Both the position numbers and the translations under genes were made by a program. Below are positions 10,084-51,915 of a DNA stretch of 64,000 nucleotides, piece after piece. Below the pieces are notes generated by a model, which did no database searches, had not been told where the DNA came from, and saw nothing but the letters and a program-made list of their open reading frames with translations. The DNA is taken from assembly GCA_014800845.1 (NCBI GenBank), contig JAAVFJ010000009.1, positions 62,001 to 126,000 of the forward strand. The letters are read 5' to 3'. The DNA comes from Bacteroidales bacterium (GTDB lineage Bacteria > Bacteroidota > Bacteroidia > Bacteroidales > Muribaculaceae). The stretch's first letter is position 1; each line of letters begins with the position of its first letter.

Positions 10084-10230
10084 TAGGTTTTAGGTGTTAG
10101 GTTTTAGGTGGCTCGGAGAACTCCGAGTGCTCCGAGCTCTCCGAGTGCTCCGAAAATTCCGAGTCCTCCGAGTTCTCCGGAAACTCCGAGAACTCCGAGC
10201 CCCCTAAAACCCAACACCTAAAAACCTACC
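10084..10230. repeat. Composite CTCCGAG intergenic element 1
   Basis: Ten tandem 9-base units of CTCCGAGnn (10112-10201) lie between a left flank of TAGGTTTTAGGTG-type repeats (10084-10111) and a right flank (10202-10230) that is nearly its reverse complement. The unit itself is close to self-complementary (CTCCGAG/CTCGGAG), so the 147-bp element could fold as one long imperfect hairpin. It fills most of the 339-base gap between the divergent glycosyltransferase and sigma genes; the rest holds the sigma promoter. Confidence 0.85.
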
Positions 10231-18215: not shown

Positions 18216-19904
18216 ATGAAACTGTCATTCAAAAATATTACCGCTTCGCTCGCGCTCGGCTCCCTCGTGGCCGCCTCGGCATGGGCCGCTGCTCCGGCTC
18301 GCAACCATGACCAGGCCGTCTCCCGCAAGCTGACCACGTTCAACGCCATTGTGCGCGAACTCTCGGAGAATTACGTGGACACCCTCCCGGTGGACCGCGC
18401 CTTCGACATGGCCATCACCGGCCTGATGATGAGCATTGACCCCTACACAGAATACTTCACCAGCGAGGAGCGCGAAGGCTTCAAGACCATGACCACCGGC
18501 CAGTATGGCGGCATCGGCTCATACATACAGATGCGCCCGGACAGCCTCGTCTACATCTCCGGACCCTACGAGGGCTCTCCGGCCGCACGCGCCGGACTCC
18601 GCACCGGCGACCTGATTCTGAAAATAGACTCTACCGACGTCACCCACGCCGGCACCAACCGCGTCAGCACGCTGCTGCGAGGGCAACCGGGCACCATTCT
18701 GGAGGTGACAGTGCAGCGCCCCTACGCCACCCCCGACTCCATCCTCACCATACCCATAAAGCGCGAAAAGCTCGACCTCCCCTCGGTGCCCTACTACGGT
18801 GTAACACACGACAATATCGGCTACATACGCCTCACCTCCTACATGGAGAAGTCGCCGCAGGAGGTGCGCAAGGCTCTGGAGGAATTCAAGGCCAACCCCG
18901 ATGTGAAAGGCATAGTGCTCGACCTCCGCGGCAATGGAGGCGGACTGGTGGAGAGCGCCGTGGAGATAGTCAACTTTTTCGTGCCCAAAGGCACCGAGGT
19001 GCTCCGCATGAAGGGGCGCGAGAAGGGCTCCGAGCGCATCTATAAGACTACCAAGCAACCGCTGCTACCCGACATGCCGCTGGCCGTGCTCATCGACGGC
19101 GCCTCTGCCTCCGCCTCCGAAATCACCGCCGGCGCCCTGCAGGACCTGGACCGCGCCGTGCTCATCGGCTCCCGCTCATTTGGCAAAGGTCTGGTGCAGA
19201 GCACTCGCCCCCTCCCCTACGACGGGATGCTGAAGGTCACCACCGCCAAATATTACATCCCCTCCGGGCGCCTCATCCAGGCGCTTGACTACTCACGCCG
19301 CAATCCCGACGGCTCTGTGGCGGCCACTCCCGACTCCCTCTGCAACACATTCACCACGCGCGCCGGACGCCTCGTGAAGGATGGCGGCGGCCTGCAGCCC
19401 GACATAAAAGTAGAATGGCCTCAGCCCGCTCCCCTCACCATAGCTCTCGTGCGCGACAACTGGATTTTTGACTACGGCACCCGATTTGCCGCCTCTCACC
19501 CCACCATCGCTGCTCCCCAGGATTTTGTCGTGACCGATGAAATCTATGAGGACTTCAAGAAATCCATAGACCCCGCGCGCCTGAAGTATGACAAGAAGTG
19601 TGAGGACCTGCTCGCCAATCTGCGCGCCACGGCCGAAAAGGAGGGTTACCTCAACGACTCCACAGCCGCTGCGTTCGACGCTCTCGCCCCCATGCTCACC
19701 CATGAGCTGCAGCGCGACCTCGACACCCATCGCCGCAACATCTCCTCCTTCATAGCCGACGACCTGCTGGGGCGATATTACTACAACCGCGGACAGATCA
19801 TAGGGGACCTCAAGGAGGATGAAGCCACCGACCGTGCAGCCGAAATCCTGACCAATCCCGCGCGATACCGCGAAATCCTCTCTGCTCCCAAACCGCAAAA
19901 GTAA
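18216..19904 (+). CDS. S41 family C-terminal processing peptidase
   Basis: 562 residues. A signal peptide (about 1-25, ending AWAAAPA) places it in the periplasm. A PDZ domain covers roughly 85-170 (GSPAARAGLRTGDLILKIDS). The protease core follows with the Ser-Lys dyad: Ser299 in DGASASASEI and Lys324 in GSRSFGKGLVQ. It is longer than E. coli-type CtpA, with about 150 residues of helical C-terminal region. Such enzymes trim C-termini of envelope proteins and lytic enzymes. It sits between nadB and aroK, 6 bases before the latter. Confidence 0.92.
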   Translation: MKLSFKNITASLALGSLVAASAWAAAPARNHDQAVSRKLTTFNAIVRELSENYVDTLPVDRAFDMAITGLMMSIDPYTEYFTSEEREGFKTMTTGQYGGIGSYIQMRPDSLVYISGPYEGSPAARAGLRTGDLILKIDSTDVTHAGTNRVSTLLRGQPGTILEVTVQRPYATPDSILTIPIKREKLDLPSVPYYGVTHDNIGYIRLTSYMEKSPQEVRKALEEFKANPDVKGIVLDLRGNGGGLVESAVEIVNFFVPKGTEVLRMKGREKGSERIYKTTKQPLLPDMPLAVLIDGASASASEITAGALQDLDRAVLIGSRSFGKGLVQSTRPLPYDGMLKVTTAKYYIPSGRLIQALDYSRRNPDGSVAATPDSLCNTFTTRAGRLVKDGGGLQPDIKVEWPQPAPLTIALVRDNWIFDYGTRFAASHPTIAAPQDFVVTDEIYEDFKKSIDPARLKYDKKCEDLLANLRATAEKEGYLNDSTAAAFDALAPMLTHELQRDLDTHRRNISSFIADDLLGRYYYNRGQIIGDLKEDEATDRAAEILTNPARYREILSAPKPQK

Positions 19905-19910
19905 ACAGCC

Positions 19911-20462
19911 ATGAGCCTGCCTATGCGCCCCCCGATTTTTCTCACCGGCCTGCCCGGCTGCGGCAAGACCACGCTGGGCCGCGCATTGGCTCGCGAGCTG
20001 CACTGCGATTTCATAGACCTCGACGCCTACATCGAGGGGCGCTTCTCCTGCTCCGTGGCTGACATTTTCGCCCGCCACGGCGAGGAACGCTTCCGAACCA
20101 TAGAGCACAATCTGCTCCATGAAGTGGCCGAGATGAACGATGTGGTAATAGCCTGCGGCGGGGGCACTCCCTGCTTCTTCGACAATATGGACTACATGCT
20201 ATCGCGCGGCTTCGTGATCCATCTGCAAGCCTCGCGCGAAAGGCTCTTCGACCGCCTGAAGCGCAAGCGCGCCAAGCGCCCGCACGTCAAGCAGCTCTCT
20301 GACTCCGAGATACTTACGTACATCGACAATATCTCGCGAGAGCGCGCCCCCTTCTACTCCAAAGCCCCCCTCACCTTCGAGAGCTCCCGGCTCGAAGACC
20401 GTGACCAGATAGCCGGCAGCCTGGCTCGCCTCATGCCCCTCCTCCCTAATGATTACCTCTAA
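19911..20462 (+). CDS. aroK: Shikimate kinase
   Basis: 183 residues. Walker A FLTGLPGCGKTTLGRALARE at about 9-28. The shikimate-binding Asp and Arg are in DFIDLDAYIEGRF and GEERFRTIEHNLL, followed by the conserved VIACGGGTPCF and lid ERAPFYSKA. It phosphorylates shikimate in aromatic amino acid synthesis. The stop codon lies in the first copy of a 21-base tandem duplication (20450-20489). Confidence 0.94.
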   Translation: MSLPMRPPIFLTGLPGCGKTTLGRALARELHCDFIDLDAYIEGRFSCSVADIFARHGEERFRTIEHNLLHEVAEMNDVVIACGGGTPCFFDNMDYMLSRGFVIHLQASRERLFDRLKRKRAKRPHVKQLSDSEILTYIDNISRERAPFYSKAPLTFESSRLEDRDQIAGSLARLMPLLPNDYL

Positions 20463-20489
20463 CACATAAGTGATTACCTCTAACACATA
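20450..20489. repeat. 21-base tandem duplication at the aroK stop
   Basis: TGATTACCTCTAACACATA occurs at 20450-20468 and again at 20471-20489. The first copy contains the last two sense codons and the stop of aroK; the second is untranslated. Confidence 0.9.
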
Positions 20490-27916: not shown

Positions 27917-29347
27917 ATGGAACAGAAACCCCGCCTCTTCTCCAAAGATGATTTTCTGAGCCGCCTGCGCGCCATTAAGGCCACGCGCTGGGTGCGCTTC
28001 TCCATAGTCTGCCTCGTCTACATCCTCTGGGTGATATGGATGGGCAACCCCTGGCTGCTACTTGTGCTGCCGCTGCTCTTTGACATCTACATCACCTCCT
28101 ACATCCCCCTGACATGGTGGAAGAGCTCCAAGAGCAAAGTGACCCGCACCGTTATGAGCTGGGTAGACGCCATAGTCTACGCTCTCGTGCTCGTCTACTT
28201 CATCTTCGCCTTCGTGGGGCAGAACTACAAGATACCCTCTTCAAGCCTTGAGAAGACGCTGCTGATCGGTGACTATCTCTGGGTGAACAAGGCCGTCTAC
28301 GGCCCCCGTGTGCCCCAGACTCCCATCCATTTCCCTCTGGCGCAGCACACACTGCCCGTCACCGACAGCAAGAGCTATTCCGATATTATTCAACTCCCCT
28401 ACCACCGCCTGCCGGGCGTACGCAGCGTGGAGCGCTACGACATAGTAGTGTTCAACGCTCCCTGCGCCGACACCGTGGCGCTGAAGATGCAGGAGCCTGA
28501 TTACTACCATATTGTAGACATGCTCGAGGCTGAAGGTGTACCCGATGGCCGCGCCTACATAGCCGCTCACCCCGAGCAGTTCGGCGAAGTGGTGTGGCGC
28601 CCCGTGGACCGTCGCGAAAACTTCGTGAAGCGCACCATAGGTCTGCCCGGCGACCGCATCAAGATTGTAGACGACATTATCTACATCAACGGCAAGCCGC
28701 TGACGGAACCTAAATATGTGCAGCACAACTACGTGGTGCCGGTGAGCTCCCCCGTGAGCAGCGAGCAGTGGAAGGGGTCGGGCGTAAGCCTCGTCGATGC
28801 CGGCACCGCTCCCCAGACCGCTCCGGGCATAGACTATCAGTTCTACAATGTGCCCCTCACCTCCGAATCGCTCGCCAAGGTGAAGAAATTCCCGCAGGTG
28901 TCAGGCGAGATTGTGCGTCTCTCGAAGCTGACCACACCCCTCACTCAGGGCATCTTCCCCGTGGGTGAAGGCCTCGGCTGGGAGCTGCGCAACATGCCGG
29001 AATTCTGGATACCCAAGCAGGGTGCCACTCTCCACCTCACGCCGCAGAATCTCCCCGTCTATCGCCGCGCCATTGAGACTTATGAAGGCAACAAGGTGGC
29101 GCTGCGCGACGGCAAAATCTATATTAACGGCGAGCCTACTGAATACTACACTTTCAAGCTCGATTACTACTGGATGATGGGCGACAACCGCGACAATTCC
29201 TCCGACTCACGCTTCTGGGGCTTTGTTCCTGAAGACCACATTGTAGGCACACCCATGACGGTGCTCGTAAGCTTCGACAATGAGGAGACTTTCCCGGGAA
29301 ACATTCGCTGGAACCGTATGTTCCGCACCCCGAATCCGGATAAGTAG
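27917..29347 (+). CDS. lepB: Signal peptidase I
   Basis: 476 residues, the long form usual in Bacteroidales. Membrane helices at about 27-65 and 83-100. The catalytic Ser110 is in IPSSSLEKTLLIGDYLWV and Lys238 in FVKRTIGLPGDRIKIV. The C-terminal box is YWMMGDNRDNSSDSRFWGF. The residue after the nucleophile is Leu and the usual Pro is Lys (PSSSLEKTL in place of PSxSMxPTL). A large insert of about 110 residues separates the Lys box from the C-terminal box. It removes signal peptides of exported proteins. Its TAG stop is also the first triplet of repeat element 2. Confidence 0.93.
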   Translation: MEQKPRLFSKDDFLSRLRAIKATRWVRFSIVCLVYILWVIWMGNPWLLLVLPLLFDIYITSYIPLTWWKSSKSKVTRTVMSWVDAIVYALVLVYFIFAFVGQNYKIPSSSLEKTLLIGDYLWVNKAVYGPRVPQTPIHFPLAQHTLPVTDSKSYSDIIQLPYHRLPGVRSVERYDIVVFNAPCADTVALKMQEPDYYHIVDMLEAEGVPDGRAYIAAHPEQFGEVVWRPVDRRENFVKRTIGLPGDRIKIVDDIIYINGKPLTEPKYVQHNYVVPVSSPVSSEQWKGSGVSLVDAGTAPQTAPGIDYQFYNVPLTSESLAKVKKFPQVSGEIVRLSKLTTPLTQGIFPVGEGLGWELRNMPEFWIPKQGATLHLTPQNLPVYRRAIETYEGNKVALRDGKIYINGEPTEYYTFKLDYYWMMGDNRDNSSDSRFWGFVPEDHIVGTPMTVLVSFDNEETFPGNIRWNRMFRTPNPDK

Positions 29348-29410
29348 GTTTTAGGTGTTAGAGAGCTCCGAGAACTCGGAGTACTCCGAGAACTCCGAGC
29401 GCTCCCCCCC
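29345..29410. repeat. Composite CTCCGAG intergenic element 2
   Basis: TAGGTTTTAGGTGTTAG (29345-29361) is followed by five 9-base CTCCGAGnn units (29366-29410). The lepB stop codon is the first triplet of the element. The right flank seen in element 1 is missing. Confidence 0.82.
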
Positions 29411-38611: not shown

Positions 38612-41600
38612 ATGGTTTTTAGCCGACGTTACAATCTTATTAATAATGCGTTGGGCTGGGGCGTTTTTGTTATCGCTCTGCTCTCGTACTGGCTCACGCT
38701 CGAGCCTACGGCCTCCTATTGGGACTGCGGCGAGTTTATCACCCAGGCCGACAAGCTTGAAATCGGTCACCCGCCCGGCAACCCCATCTTTATGCTCACG
38801 GCGCGCTTTTTCGCCAACTTCGCTTTCGGCGATGCCGCCCGCGTGGCGCTGATGGTCAATGCCATGAGCGGCCTGCTCAGCGCCCTCACTATTCTGCTGC
38901 TCTTCTGGACGGTGACCCACCTGGTGCGCCGCCTCGTGATGTATTCCCCCCGCAGCAACATCGCCACCGACGGTGAGCCCTCACTCACTCAGTATCTGCT
39001 GATTATGGGCTCCGGCATCTGCGGCGCTCTGGCATACGCCTGGAGCGACACCTTCTGGTTCTCTGCCGTGGAGGCCGAGGTTTACGCCTTCTCCAGCTTC
39101 TGCACCGCCCTGGTGTTCTGGCTCATTCTCAAGTGGGAAAACCACTGCGACGAACCCCGCGCGGACCGCTATCTGATTCTCATAGCCTACGTGATCGGCG
39201 TCTCTGTAGCCGTCCATCTGCTCAACCTGCTCTGTATCCCCGCCATAGTGCTCGTCTACTGCTTCCGCCGCTTCCCCGGTATGAATGTAGGCAAATCGCT
39301 GCTGGCGCTGCTCGTGAGCTTCGCCATAATCGTGCTGGTGCTCTACGGCCTCGTGCCCGGCTTCATCAAGGTGGCGCAGTGGTTTGAGCTGCTGTGTGTC
39401 AACACCTTCGGCATGGGCTTCAACTCCGGCACCGGCCTCTATGCGCTCATCACTCTGCTCGTGTTCATCTGGGCCCTCGTGGAGCTCTATCGCCAGCAGT
39501 CAGCCGCGCTCATCAGAGCGAGCTTCTTTGTGGCCACTCTGCTCTCGGGCATGCTCTTCATAGGCAGCAGCCTCATCATAGGCATCCTGCTGGCCTGTGT
39601 GCTCGCTTACTTCCTCTTCTTCAAGTGGAAAAAGGGGCTGCCGGTGCGCTGGCTCAATGTGGCCATGTGGAGCATCTGCGTAATCTTCGTGGGCTACAGC
39701 TCCTACGCGCTGATTCTCATACGCTCCGGCGCAGCCACCCCCATGAACCAGAATCAGCCCGACAACGTGTTTGACCTGTCGGCCTACCTCAGCCGCGAGC
39801 AGTATGGCGAGACTCCGCTGCTCTACGGACAGACCTTCGAAAGCTCCCCCATGCAGGAGATGACCGACGAAATCGACCCCCGCGAGAATCTCCCCGCCGG
39901 CTACAGCCCCACCCATGAGCGCACGCTCGTGACCAAGGGCAAAGCCGAGTATGCCAAGGGAGTGAAGAATGCGGTGCCCGATAATGCCAACGAGTTCCTC
40001 ACTCAGGAGCAGGTAGACAAGGTGGTGACCGCCTCCAAGTCAGGCCGCCCCTTCTACGCGCTCTATGACTATGTGGCTGAATACAAGATGAATCCGGAGC
40101 TCAACGTGCTCCTGCCCCGCATACACTCCACCGCTCCCGGCCATGCTCAGGCCTATGAGCTCTGGGTGCCCTCGCTGCGCGACGCCGAGCGTGTGGAGCT
40201 CTCTGCCTGGGACCCCCGCACGCAGACCAACGTGCCCCTGCTCTCCACTCAGCAGGCGGTGAACGAGGCTGGCGAATATTACCAGCCCATCGAGACTGCA
40301 CGCAAGCCCTCGTTCTGGCAGAACATGCAGTTCTTCTTCAACTATCAGCTCAACCACATGTACTGGCGCTACTTCCTCTGGAACTTCGCCGGCCGACAGA
40401 ATGATGTCAACAATCAGTATGGCGAAAAGGATGCCGGCAACTGGCTGACAGGCATCCCCGTCATCGACAACGCCCGACTTGGCGACCAGTCGCTCCTCCC
40501 CGCCGACCTTGGCAAGGAGAACAAGGGGCATAACGTGTTTTACATGCTCCCGTTGCTGCTCGGCATCATCGGTCTGCTTTGGCAGGCTCTGCGCGGACGC
40601 CGCGGCATCGAGCAGTTCTGGGTGGTCTTCTTCCTCTTCTTCATGACCGGCATAGCCATAGTGCTCTACCTCAACCAGCCCCCCCTCCAGCCCCGCGAAC
40701 GTGACTACGCCTTCGCCGGCTCCTTCTACGCCTTCGCAATCTGGATCGGCATGGGTGTGGCCGGAATCTACTACGGCCTCAAGTGGCTGCTTGAGCGCCG
40801 TCAGCAGAAAGCCGGTCGTCCCTCGGAGAACTCCGAGAGCTCCGAGAACTCCCAACCCTCCGCTGACGCCCACAAGAACTTAGCCTGGATAGCCGCCGCA
40901 ATAGGCCTCTTAGTGCCCCTGCAGATGGTCTCTCAGACCTGGGACGACCATGACCGCTCAGGCCGCTACGCCGCCCGCGACTACGCCATCAACTATCTGG
41001 AAAGCCTTGAGCCCAACGCCATTATCTTCTGCAACGGCGACAATGATACCTTCCCCCTCTGGTATGCCCAGGAGGTCGAGGGTGTGCGCCCCGACGTGAA
41101 GATTATCAACCTCTCCTATCTGGCCTCCGAGTGGTATGCCAACCAGCAGCGTCTGCAGACCTACTCGGCCATGCCGGTAGAATTCACCGCTAAGCCCGAG
41201 GACTACGCCTACGGACGCCGCAGTGTGACCTACATCACCCGCGTGACCGACCGCACCACCCCCACGCCGCTCGTCACGGCGCTCAAGGAAATCTACGGCC
41301 CCGACGCCATAGACCGCGGCTACAATCTCCCCATAGCTCTCCACTCCAACACCTATATACCCGTCGACTCCGCAGCCGTAGTGAAATCGGGCCTCGTAAG
41401 CCCCGAGGAGGCCAAGCTGCTGGAACCCATGATTCCCGTGCAGCTCTCATCAATGAGCCTGGGCAAGCTGCTGATGCTCGACATCATCGCCACCAACGCT
41501 CAGAATGGCTGGAAGCGACCCATCTATTGGGCTATGACAGTGGGCAGCGACCAATACTCGCAGTTCCTCCCCTATCTGCGCCAGACCGGCATGGCTCTCC

Positions 41601-42530: not shown

Positions 42531-42704
42531 AAGGGTGAAGGGTGAAGGGTGAAGGGTTAAGGGTGAAGGGTGAAGGGTTAGAGTGCTCCGAAAACTCCGA
42601 AAACTCTGAGAACTCCGAAAGCTCCGAGCACCCATAACCCTTAACCCATAACCCTTAACCCATAACCCTTAACCCATAACCCTTAACCCATAACCCATAA
42701 CCTA
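42531..42704. repeat. Composite CTCCGAG intergenic element 3
   Basis: The left flank has seven-base AAGGGTG/AAGGGTT repeats (42531-42580). Five CTCCGAGnn units form the core (42586-42630). The right flank has alternating CCCATAA and CCCTTAA heptamers, four 14-base copies and more (42632-42704). The flanks are near reverse complements. It lies directly between the DUF2723 stop and the tsaE start. Confidence 0.87.
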
Positions 42705-43898: not shown

Positions 43899-44007
43899 GT
43901 TTTAAGGGTTAAGGGTTAAGGGTTAGAGAGCTCCGAGTGCTCGGAGTACTCCGAGTACTCCGAGTACTCCGAGTACTCCGAGTACTCCGAGAGCTCCCAA
44001 AACTCCC
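43896..44007. repeat. Composite CTCCGAG intergenic element 4
   Basis: TAGGTTTTAAGGGTTAAGGG (43896-43915 onward) is followed from 43931 by eight 9-base units, four of them identical CTCCGAGTA. The birA stop codon is the first triplet, as for lepB in element 2. There is no right flank. Confidence 0.85.
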
Positions 44008-44034
44008 ATTTTTTTCAATTTCCCGGGATTTTTG

Positions 44035-46274: not shown

Positions 46275-46277
46275 CCC

Positions 46278-46367
46278 CGGCCAAACAACCGAACAGATTT
46301 CGGCCAAATAACCGAATGAAACCCGGCCAAATGACCGAATGGATTCCAGCCAAATAACCGAATTGCC
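46278..46367. repeat. Four 23-bp tandem repeats upstream of a DUF4143 ATPase
   Basis: Copies at 46278-46300, 46301-46323, 46324-46346 and 46347-46367 (last truncated), each with the core GGCCAAATAACCGAAT and small changes. They end 12 bases before the -7 element TACCTTTG at 46380-46387. Confidence 0.88.
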
Positions 46368-51714: not shown

Positions 51715-51797
51715 TACCTTTGCATTGAGTTTTTCATGGTATTAGATTTTAAGGTTAACACAATGGATTGGTTGTCGAGATGACAATCAATTTTTTT
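51715..51797 (+). ncRNA. Candidate small RNA with its own terminator
   Basis: TACCTTTG (-7) at 51715-51722 is followed about 40 bases later by a terminator hairpin: GATTGGTTGTC (51766-51776) with GACAATCAATT (51782-51792), then T to 51797. The transcript would be about 70 bases with no ORF. It lies in the 434-base gap between hemW and the first cargo gene and is not the promoter of either. The text TTTTTCATGGTATTAGATTT in it looks familiar from other Bacteroidales, which a search should test. Confidence 0.6.
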
Positions 51798-51915
51798 ATG
51801 TACCTACCCCAACCATCGACCCGCACTGTCCACGCCGCCACGATAAACACGCGGCGATGACGCGGCAATGAAGCAGGGGAAACACAGGGGGAAATTCCAA
51901 AAAATCCATAATTTT

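What the first reader, a model, noticed from the sequence alone, without database searches (positions are those of the whole stretch)
10084..10230. Composite intergenic repeat family with a 9-bp CTCCGAGnn core and inverted G-rich flanks
Seen directly: four gaps (10084, 29345, 42531, 43896) carry the same build. A TAGGTTTTAGG or AAGGGTTAAGGG flank comes first, then 5-10 tandem 9-mers of CTCCGAGnn. In two of the four the opposite flank is a near reverse complement. In this copy flanks plus the near-self-complementary core could fold as one ~147-bp hairpin between two divergent genes. I know no named Bacteroidota element with this build. It may be a mobile hairpin minisatellite, a protein-binding array or an mRNA stability structure.
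Basis: seen in the sequence. Interest (0 to 1): 0.72.

Follow-up and report, generated by a model that had tools for sequence, protein, structure and literature searches.

The report
Polarised short-repeat hairpins between genes
This unnamed bacterium carries dozens of short-repeat blocks wedged between its genes, nearly always built guanine-rich first and cytosine-rich last and missing from its nearest available relative, which points to an unexplained DNA process that writes the same few short words at gene edges.

Summary
CTCCGAGnn arrays sit in the four named gaps and at 28 places genome-wide (48 exact unit pairs, 0 reversed-control matches). In 754 kb, tandem arrays are almost only of period 7 (29) and 9 (39). 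Seven-base G-rich words (GGTTTTA, GGGTTAN) stand left, self-complementary 9-mers in the middle, C-rich complements right: of 34 core clusters 21 are purely G-first, none purely C-first, 1 both, 12 without flank words. The order prevails in tandem, convergent and divergent gaps (29 against 5); words begin at stop or start codons. The nearest available relative (median protein identity 72%) keeps the same neighbours with short, array-free gaps. Non-trivial 20-mers recur at unlinked elements, so words seem copied between loci. Other genomes use other words; the order holds in 10 of 12 scorable arrays. I favour a DNA-level copying process that extends the G-rich 3' strand away from gene edges, with hairpin snap-back, over a selected RNA hairpin, without certainty. 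Closest known kind: the G-rich heptamer repeats of Xanthomonas and Nostoc, which share the polarity. Tests for RAYT, Ku and a UG17-type reverse transcriptase found no clear driver.

The parts
10084..10110 (+). left G-rich heptamer arm (GGTTTTA/GGTGTTA)
10112..10199 (+). core: about 10 CTCNGAGnn units, first CTCGGAG then CTCCGAG
10200..10230 (+). right C-rich arm, near reverse complement of the left arm including the TGTT variant unit
29345..29406 (+). element 2: TAG stop codon inside GTAGGTTTTAGGTGTTAG, then 5 core units running into C-rich sequence
42531..42584 (+). element 3, left arm: AAGGGTG/AAGGGTT heptamers, starting next to the stop codon (TAA)
42586..42628 (+). element 3, core units
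42630..42703 (+). element 3, right arm: ACCCATA/ACCCTTA heptamers ending just before the tsaE-like start codon
43896..43930 (+). element 4, left arm: TAG stop codon inside TTAGGTTTTAAGGGTTAAGGG
43931..44008 (+). element 4, core (CTCCGAGTA repeated) running into CTCCCAAAA units
40822..40862 (+). in-frame 9-mers (S-E-N) in a linker of the TMEM260-like protein; linker length in G110 differs by one residue
3084..3166 (.). in-frame 9-mers coding a Ser/Glu/Pro-rich C-terminal tail (gene on - strand)

Best explanation
The four gaps are copies of a dispersed family of mosaic short-repeat elements made by a DNA-level process. Short words of 7 or 9 bases are written onto the G-rich 3' strand running away from a gene edge. 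At the two sides of a gap this gives G-words on the left and, read on the same strand, C-words on the right. The self-complementary 9-mers CTCNGAGnn lie between them and let the 3' end fold back or the two sides anneal. Words are copied from other arrays in the genome, probably by microhomology-primed template switching; stop codons TAG and TAA match the words TTAGG and TTAAGG and may serve as landing points. Where one arm is copied by snap-back, the element becomes a near-perfect hairpin, as at 10084. Shown: presence, periods, order, gene-edge position, length excess over G110, words shared between loci. Inferred: 3' outgrowth, template switching, snap-back, near-neutrality of most copies.
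For: Periods almost only 7 and 9 (29 and 39 arrays; other periods from 4 to 13 at most 6) in 754 kb against 1 and 10 in 1.19 Mb of G110. Order: 21 of 34 core clusters purely G-first, 0 purely C-first, 1 both, 12 without words; adjacent opposite word runs G-C 16, C-G 0. Word-free G-minus-C test: array gaps 29 G-first, 5 C-first (tandem 19:3, convergent 7:2, divergent 3:0) while array-free convergent gaps lean the other way, 9:27. Coding-strand words within 40 nt: G after stop 25, C after stop 8, C before start 20, G before start 1. TAG is the stop at 8 of 22 word-adjacent ends against 42 of 505 others. Syntenic array gaps: median 106.5 bp against 27.5 bp in G110; gaps without arrays 33 against 41. 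173 non-perfect 20-mers shared by two or more elements, 36 of 47 elements sharing some 20-mer, 0 in 188 random windows. Of 11 elements with at least two words on each arm, 5 carry different word types on the arms. Single arrays do not fold better than shuffles. Other genomes, other words: 10 arrays consistent, 2 opposite, 2 filling the gap.
Against: No enzyme or template was found. No strain-level comparison was possible, so growth was not seen. Gaps with arrays are no richer in synteny breaks (2 of 13 against 19 of 96), which speaks against misjoined breaks. A looser word set gave 21 G-C and 8 C-G neighbours, every C-G pair having a single word on its C arm. In convergent gaps alone 7:2 is not significant (p 0.18). 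Six of 11 two-armed elements have the same word type on both arms, not more than chance over all 29 pairs (P 0.18). Random windows are a weak control for shared 20-mers, because arrays built from few words can coincide. The in-gene array at 40822 lies in a linker of unchanged length, so it is not an added insertion there.
Confidence: 0.4

Rival explanations
1. Selected RNA elements: transcribed intercistronic or 3' hairpins that protect, process or insulate mRNAs, working like REP/BIME elements of enterobacteria, kept G-first because of how they are read.
For: Two-armed copies fold far better than shuffles (10084: z -12.5; 42531: z -8.3; several with z -5 to -9). 26 of 37 array gaps are tandem, 8 convergent, 3 divergent, against 229, 46 and 60 of 335 gaps of at least 30 bp, so divergent gaps are poor in arrays.
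Against: Median z over 48 array regions is only -1.5 and single arrays reach +2.6 (20 shuffles each). The syntenic gaps listed for G110 show no arrays. Words differ between arms in 5 of 11 two-armed elements. Core words also occur inside genes.
Confidence: 0.25
2. Plain replication slippage of G-rich 7- and 9-mers plus selection: G-rich, Shine-Dalgarno-like or quadruplex-forming words are purged just before start codons, which leaves C-words there and G-words elsewhere.
For: Only 1 G-word before a start against 20 C-words. All 5 small gaps filled by one array have C-words on the coding strand (four G arrays between - genes, one C array between + genes). Heptamers have been suggested as favoured by polymerase slippage (PMC4692102, discussion read).
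Against: Does not predict G-first between convergent genes (7:2 against 9:27 in array-free gaps). Does not explain words shared between unlinked loci or why G110 at similar gene content has almost none.
Confidence: 0.22
3. A non-autonomous transposable element moved by a transposase in trans (MITE or REP moved by a RAYT).
For: Dispersed, intergenic, palindromic, patchy between species.
Against: No fixed ends or consensus unit. Y1_Tnp (RAYT-type) hits in G000 are two weak ones, one with a stop inside; array-free G110 has three strong ones; array-bearing G035 has none. Target-site duplications were not tested.
Confidence: 0.05
4. Products of a repeat-writing reverse transcriptase of the DRT10/UG17 or telomerase kind, entering the chromosome.
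For: DRT10 makes tandem repeats, 9 nt in one system and of other lengths in others (PMC12632851, passages read). RVT_1 matches in 4 of 5 array-bearing genomes tested and 0 of 2 without. G-first/C-last equals the polarity of fused telomeres (recalled).
Against: The only RVT_1 match in G000 scores best as a generic RT (140.8 bits) and only 88.8 bits as UG17; from recall it looks like a diversity-generating type. UG17-model matches: 8 of 18 array-bearing and 2 of 10 other genomes, with cross-hits among RTs; array-rich G239 has none, though it is only 85% complete.
Confidence: 0.06

Closest known systems
G-rich heptamer repeats GGGNATC / GGGGA(C/T)T of Xanthomonas and Nostoc (Rehm et al. 2015, PMC4692102; abstract and sections 10, 13, 14, 16 read)
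   Same: Heptamer G-rich arrays spread over the genome, mostly intergenic, nearer to the 5' neighbouring ORF whatever its orientation, overlapping stop codons, often as convergent inverted pairs (70 and 75 cases), rare between divergent genes.
   Different: Here a self-complementary 9-mer core lies between the arms, several words are mixed in one element, and the nearest available relative lacks them; in Xanthomonas 83% were shared between two species. Different phylum.
TAACTGA heptamer repeats of Beggiatoaceae, Cyanobacteria and some Bacteroidetes (MacGregor 2015, PMC4679880; abstract and section 12 read)
   Same: Intergenic heptamers near gene starts, patchy across distant taxa, relatives with shorter gaps and no repeats.
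   Different: One word, mostly one-armed, no G-first/C-last order described in what I read.
REP/BIME palindromic elements (recalled)
   Same: Dispersed mosaic palindromes between genes.
   Different: No conserved 20-40 nt unit and no RAYT link here.
BrickBuilt MITE of Porphyromonas gingivalis (PMC4596501, abstract read)
   Same: Bacteroidales minisatellite between inverted ends, intergenic.
   Different: 23-nt unit with fixed leader and tail; it lies 49-591 nt from genes, whereas ours can touch stop and start codons.
Borg tandem repeats (PMC9879509, abstract read)
   Same: Fast-evolving tandem repeats both between and inside genes, giving disordered protein stretches.
   Different: Borg repeats are described as A-enriched and lie on extrachromosomal elements.

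Membership tests
G-rich heptamer repeats of the Rehm type | tandem G-rich heptamers, two or more units, mostly intergenic | tested here: met
   28 period-7 arrays with G- or C-bias, 27 of them intergenic
G-rich heptamer repeats of the Rehm type | unit GGGNATC or GGGGA(C/T)T | tested here: not met
   Words are GGTTTTA, GGTGTTA, GGGTTAN, GGGTGAN
G-rich heptamer repeats of the Rehm type | G strand nearer to its 5' neighbouring gene | tested here: met
   G arrays near left edge 14 of 19, C arrays near right edge 15 of 17
G-rich heptamer repeats of the Rehm type | forms G-quadruplexes in vitro | not testable with these tools
   needs spectroscopy
REP/BIME with RAYT | conserved palindromic unit of 20-40 nt | tested here: not met
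   units and ends vary between elements
REP/BIME with RAYT | RAYT-type Y1 transposase in array-bearing genomes | tested here: inconclusive
   weak or broken hits in G000, none in G035, strong in array-free G110
MITE | constant terminal inverted repeats | tested here: not met
   arms differ in word type in 5 of 11 two-armed elements
MITE | target-site duplication | not tested
   the relative is too diverged to align gaps
DRT10/telomerase-like repeat products | UG17 reverse transcriptase in array-bearing genomes | tested here: inconclusive
   8 of 18 array-bearing, 2 of 10 other genomes match the model, with cross-hits; best hit of G000 is generic RT
DRT10/telomerase-like repeat products | template RNA matching the repeat word | not tested
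   no RNA data; templates not searched

The most novel reading that the evidence does not exclude
These bacteria have a telomerase-like activity: an enzyme, perhaps with an RNA template that differs between species, adds short G-rich words to free chromosomal 3' ends. Two such ends then join through the self-complementary 9-mer, leaving fossil head-to-head pairs between genes, with the polarity of fused telomeres.
Probability: 0.06. Interest if true: 0.93.

Novelty: new variant of a known kind. Interest (0 to 1): 0.6.

Why it matters
Short G-rich repeats between bacterial genes have been described in distant phyla without a mechanism. Here their order is nearly strict, does not follow gene direction, is anchored on gene edges, goes with species-specific word sets and is absent from the nearest available relative. 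That makes the origin question testable by sequencing close strains. If the order reflects 3' outgrowth, bacteria have a so far unnamed way of writing tandem repeats into chromosomes. If it reflects selection, it is a genome-wide RNA or DNA element class in these bacteria.

Tried and rejected
RAYT-driven mobility: not supported. Ku-dependent end joining: no Ku match in 28 of 28 genomes, control hit in Bacillus subtilis. UG17/DRT10 reverse transcriptase: no clear association. Rearrangement joints: not supported. Phage carriage: 6 viral contigs match the three-unit pattern; the stretches seen look like coding repeats without heptamer flanks. AB alternation of units (period 14 or 18) as a rule: not general, lag-2 identity exceeds lag-1 in 12 of 29 period-7 and 6 of 29 period-9 arrays. 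Co-occurrence of the two words: GGGTTAN arrays in 24 and CTCCGAG pairs in 76 of 397 family genomes, both in 7 by my count, about 4.6 expected. Single CTCCGAG pairs are not informative: by my count roughly 65 of the same 397 genomes have at least one hit of the reversed control, but its highest count is 3, whereas 29 genomes in 8 genera have 5 or more true hits. Sites shared with array-bearing congeners: 19 foreign loci tried, no clear shared site except perhaps one (L047). Literature searches that found no description of this build.

Full report
Check of the observation. The four gaps carry the stated build. The pair CTCCGAGNNCTCCGAG with up to two mismatches occurs 47 times in the window against 0.81 expected, and 48 times exactly in the 2.45-Mb genome with no match of the reversed control. 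These 48 lie at 28 places by my count of the listing. Tandem Repeats Finder gives the same arrays. The focal element 10084-10230 folds as one hairpin at -82.6 kcal/mol, z -12.5, or z -9.2 with DNA parameters.

What the family looks like. Taking 754 kb of the same genome (plus the window), I listed tandem arrays by period. Period 7 gave 29 and period 9 gave 39; the other periods from 4 to 13 gave at most 6 each, and 14, 18 and 21 are multiples. The sister G110 gave 1 and 10 in 1.19 Mb. G110 is the best match among the 111 genus genomes searched with window DNA, at a median protein identity of 72% over 266 best hits. Some period-9 arrays are ordinary coding repeats: of 68 arrays 9 lie mostly in genes, and G110's listed ones look of that kind.

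Words. G-arms are built of GGTTTTA, GGTGTTA, GGGTTAN or GGGTGAN heptamers, or of 9-mers such as GGGAGTTTT and GGGAGCTAT. The core is CTCNGAGnn. C-arms are the complements. One arm may change word midway (for example, L139 18822-18985).

Order. With words in either orientation scored alike, 34 core clusters in 776 kb gave 21 purely G-first, 0 purely C-first, 1 with both (two neighbouring elements), 12 without flank words. Adjacent opposite runs were G-then-C 16 times and C-then-G 0 times. The words were chosen after seeing elements, but the choice is blind to order. A looser word set gave 21 G-C and 8 C-G neighbours, with every C-G pair having a single word on its C arm; with at least two words on each arm it is 11 to 0 (counted from its rows). 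A word-free test on G minus C in the two halves of each gap gave 29 G-first and 5 C-first array gaps (one tie): tandem 19:3, convergent 7:2, divergent 3:0. Array-free gaps gave tandem 92:88, convergent 9:27, divergent 36:18. So the order is not the background skew, at least in tandem and convergent gaps; convergent alone is not significant (p 0.18). In divergent gaps background and arrays point the same way.

Gene edges. G-arrays lie nearer the left gene edge in 14 of 19 and C-arrays nearer the right in 15 of 17; five of the seven exceptions fill a small gap from gene to gene. Within 40 nt, coding-strand G-words follow stops 25 times and precede starts once; C-words precede starts 20 times and follow stops 8 times. 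At 22 ends with a G-word close by, the stop is TAG 8 times and TGA 3 times, against 42 and 192 of 505 other ends (Fisher p 0.0004 and 0.02). By eye, in about 8 of the 22 the stop codon is itself in phase with the repeat, for example TTTTTAG|GTTTTAGG and GGGTTAA|GGGTTAAGGG.

Comparison with the relative. Twelve syntenic gaps with arrays have a median of 106.5 bp against 27.5 bp in G110; 123 without arrays have 33 against 41. Two of the twelve are doubtful: C9 89153 is a lysine-rich gene end, and for C5 19055 the G110 gap is 1607 bp. Of the other ten, nine are longer in G000. The G110 sequences printed show no arrays. Gaps with arrays are not richer in synteny breaks, 2 of 13 against 19 of 96.

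Copying between loci. 215 20-mers recur in two or more of 47 elements, 173 of them not perfect repeats; 36 elements take part. 188 random windows gave none, a weak control for repeat arrays. One 18-bp double unit (GGGAGTTTT GGGAGCTAT) underlies 20-mers found in 5 elements, and a GGTTTTA/GGTGTTA mixture in 4.

Inside genes. In-frame 9-mers code S-E-N stretches at 40822; the linker there has the same length, within one residue, in G110, so words replaced sequence rather than adding it.

Distribution. Three-unit arrays occur in 5 of 111 genus genomes. Two-unit pairs occur in 76 of 397 family genomes, but by my count roughly 65 genomes have one or more reversed-control hits, so only higher counts mean something: 29 genomes in 8 genera have 5 or more, and the control never exceeds 3. 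GGGTTAN arrays occur in 24 of 397, where one genome (G053) has 19 control hits that themselves look like another G-rich heptamer. In other genomes with other words, 10 arrays obeyed the order, 2 did not, 2 filled the gap; mixed and contig-edge arrays were not scored. These 10 come from 8 elements, and one (L101) was fetched with a pattern that favours G-first.

Folding and function. Over 48 array regions the median z is -1.5; two-armed ones reach -5 to -9, single arrays up to +2.6 (20 shuffles each). So an RNA hairpin cannot be the common property, although it fits the focal copy well. Arms carry the same word type in 6 and different types in 5 of 11 two-armed elements. The focal copy has matching arms down to its variant unit, which suggests copying of one arm from the other.

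Drivers tested. Y1 transposases: weak or broken in G000, strong in array-free G110, none in array-bearing G035. Ku: 0 of 28. RVT_1: 4 of 5 array-bearing, 0 of 2 other genomes. UG17 model: 8 of 18 and 2 of 10. The RT of G000 is best called generic; that it is of the diversity-generating type is recall. Several of these genomes are incomplete.

What is known. Rehm et al. 2015 (PMC4692102, sections read) describe GGGNATC-type heptamers with the same nearness to the 5' neighbour and 70 to 75 convergent pairs in xanthomonads. MacGregor 2015 (PMC4679880) describes TAACTGA heptamers with shorter, repeat-free gaps in relatives. DRT10 makes 9-nt tandem repeats (PMC12632851, passages). Eight searches of the held library found no description of the composite build; subscription papers and most preprints are not in it.

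Verdict. A real, genome-wide, polarised repeat family; a new variant of a known kind; mechanism inferred, not shown. The comparison that would decide, close strains, was not available.

Noticed in passing
51727-51800: Rfam match to BTncRNA_FopS, a family of paralogous sRNAs of Bacteroidetes.
   Followed up: no
46276-46363: Array of a 23-bp repeat (CCGGCCAAATAACCGAATGGATT), 3.8 copies, between genes, unrelated to the family.
   Followed up: no
20450-20489: Perfect 21-bp tandem duplication across the end of one gene.
   Followed up: no
18581-18673: ARAGORN calls a tRNA-Thr antisense inside a long ORF; the Rfam scan does not list it, so it may be a false call.
   Followed up: partly
G000 C17:33845-33968 (L018): G110 has a GC-rich hairpin in the same gap; in G000 the 9-mers lie in the tip of a hairpin there, as if grown inside it.
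   Followed up: partly
L047 (G035) and G000 C9:131474-131510: The same gene (89% identical) is preceded by a CTCCGAG array in G035 and by C-heptamers in G000; the left neighbour of L047 found no match.
   Followed up: partly
L250 4217-4337 (G410): 8-bp repeats (AACAAGCT-like, then the complement) with the purine-rich strand first: another word length with a similar order.
   Followed up: no
G053: 19 hits of the reversed heptamer control (ATTGGGN repeats), so this species may use another G-rich heptamer.
   Followed up: no
L284 1189-2734 (G000 C42): The only RVT_1 reverse transcriptase match of the genome, next to a 187-aa ORF; looks like a diversity-generating type from recall.
   Followed up: partly
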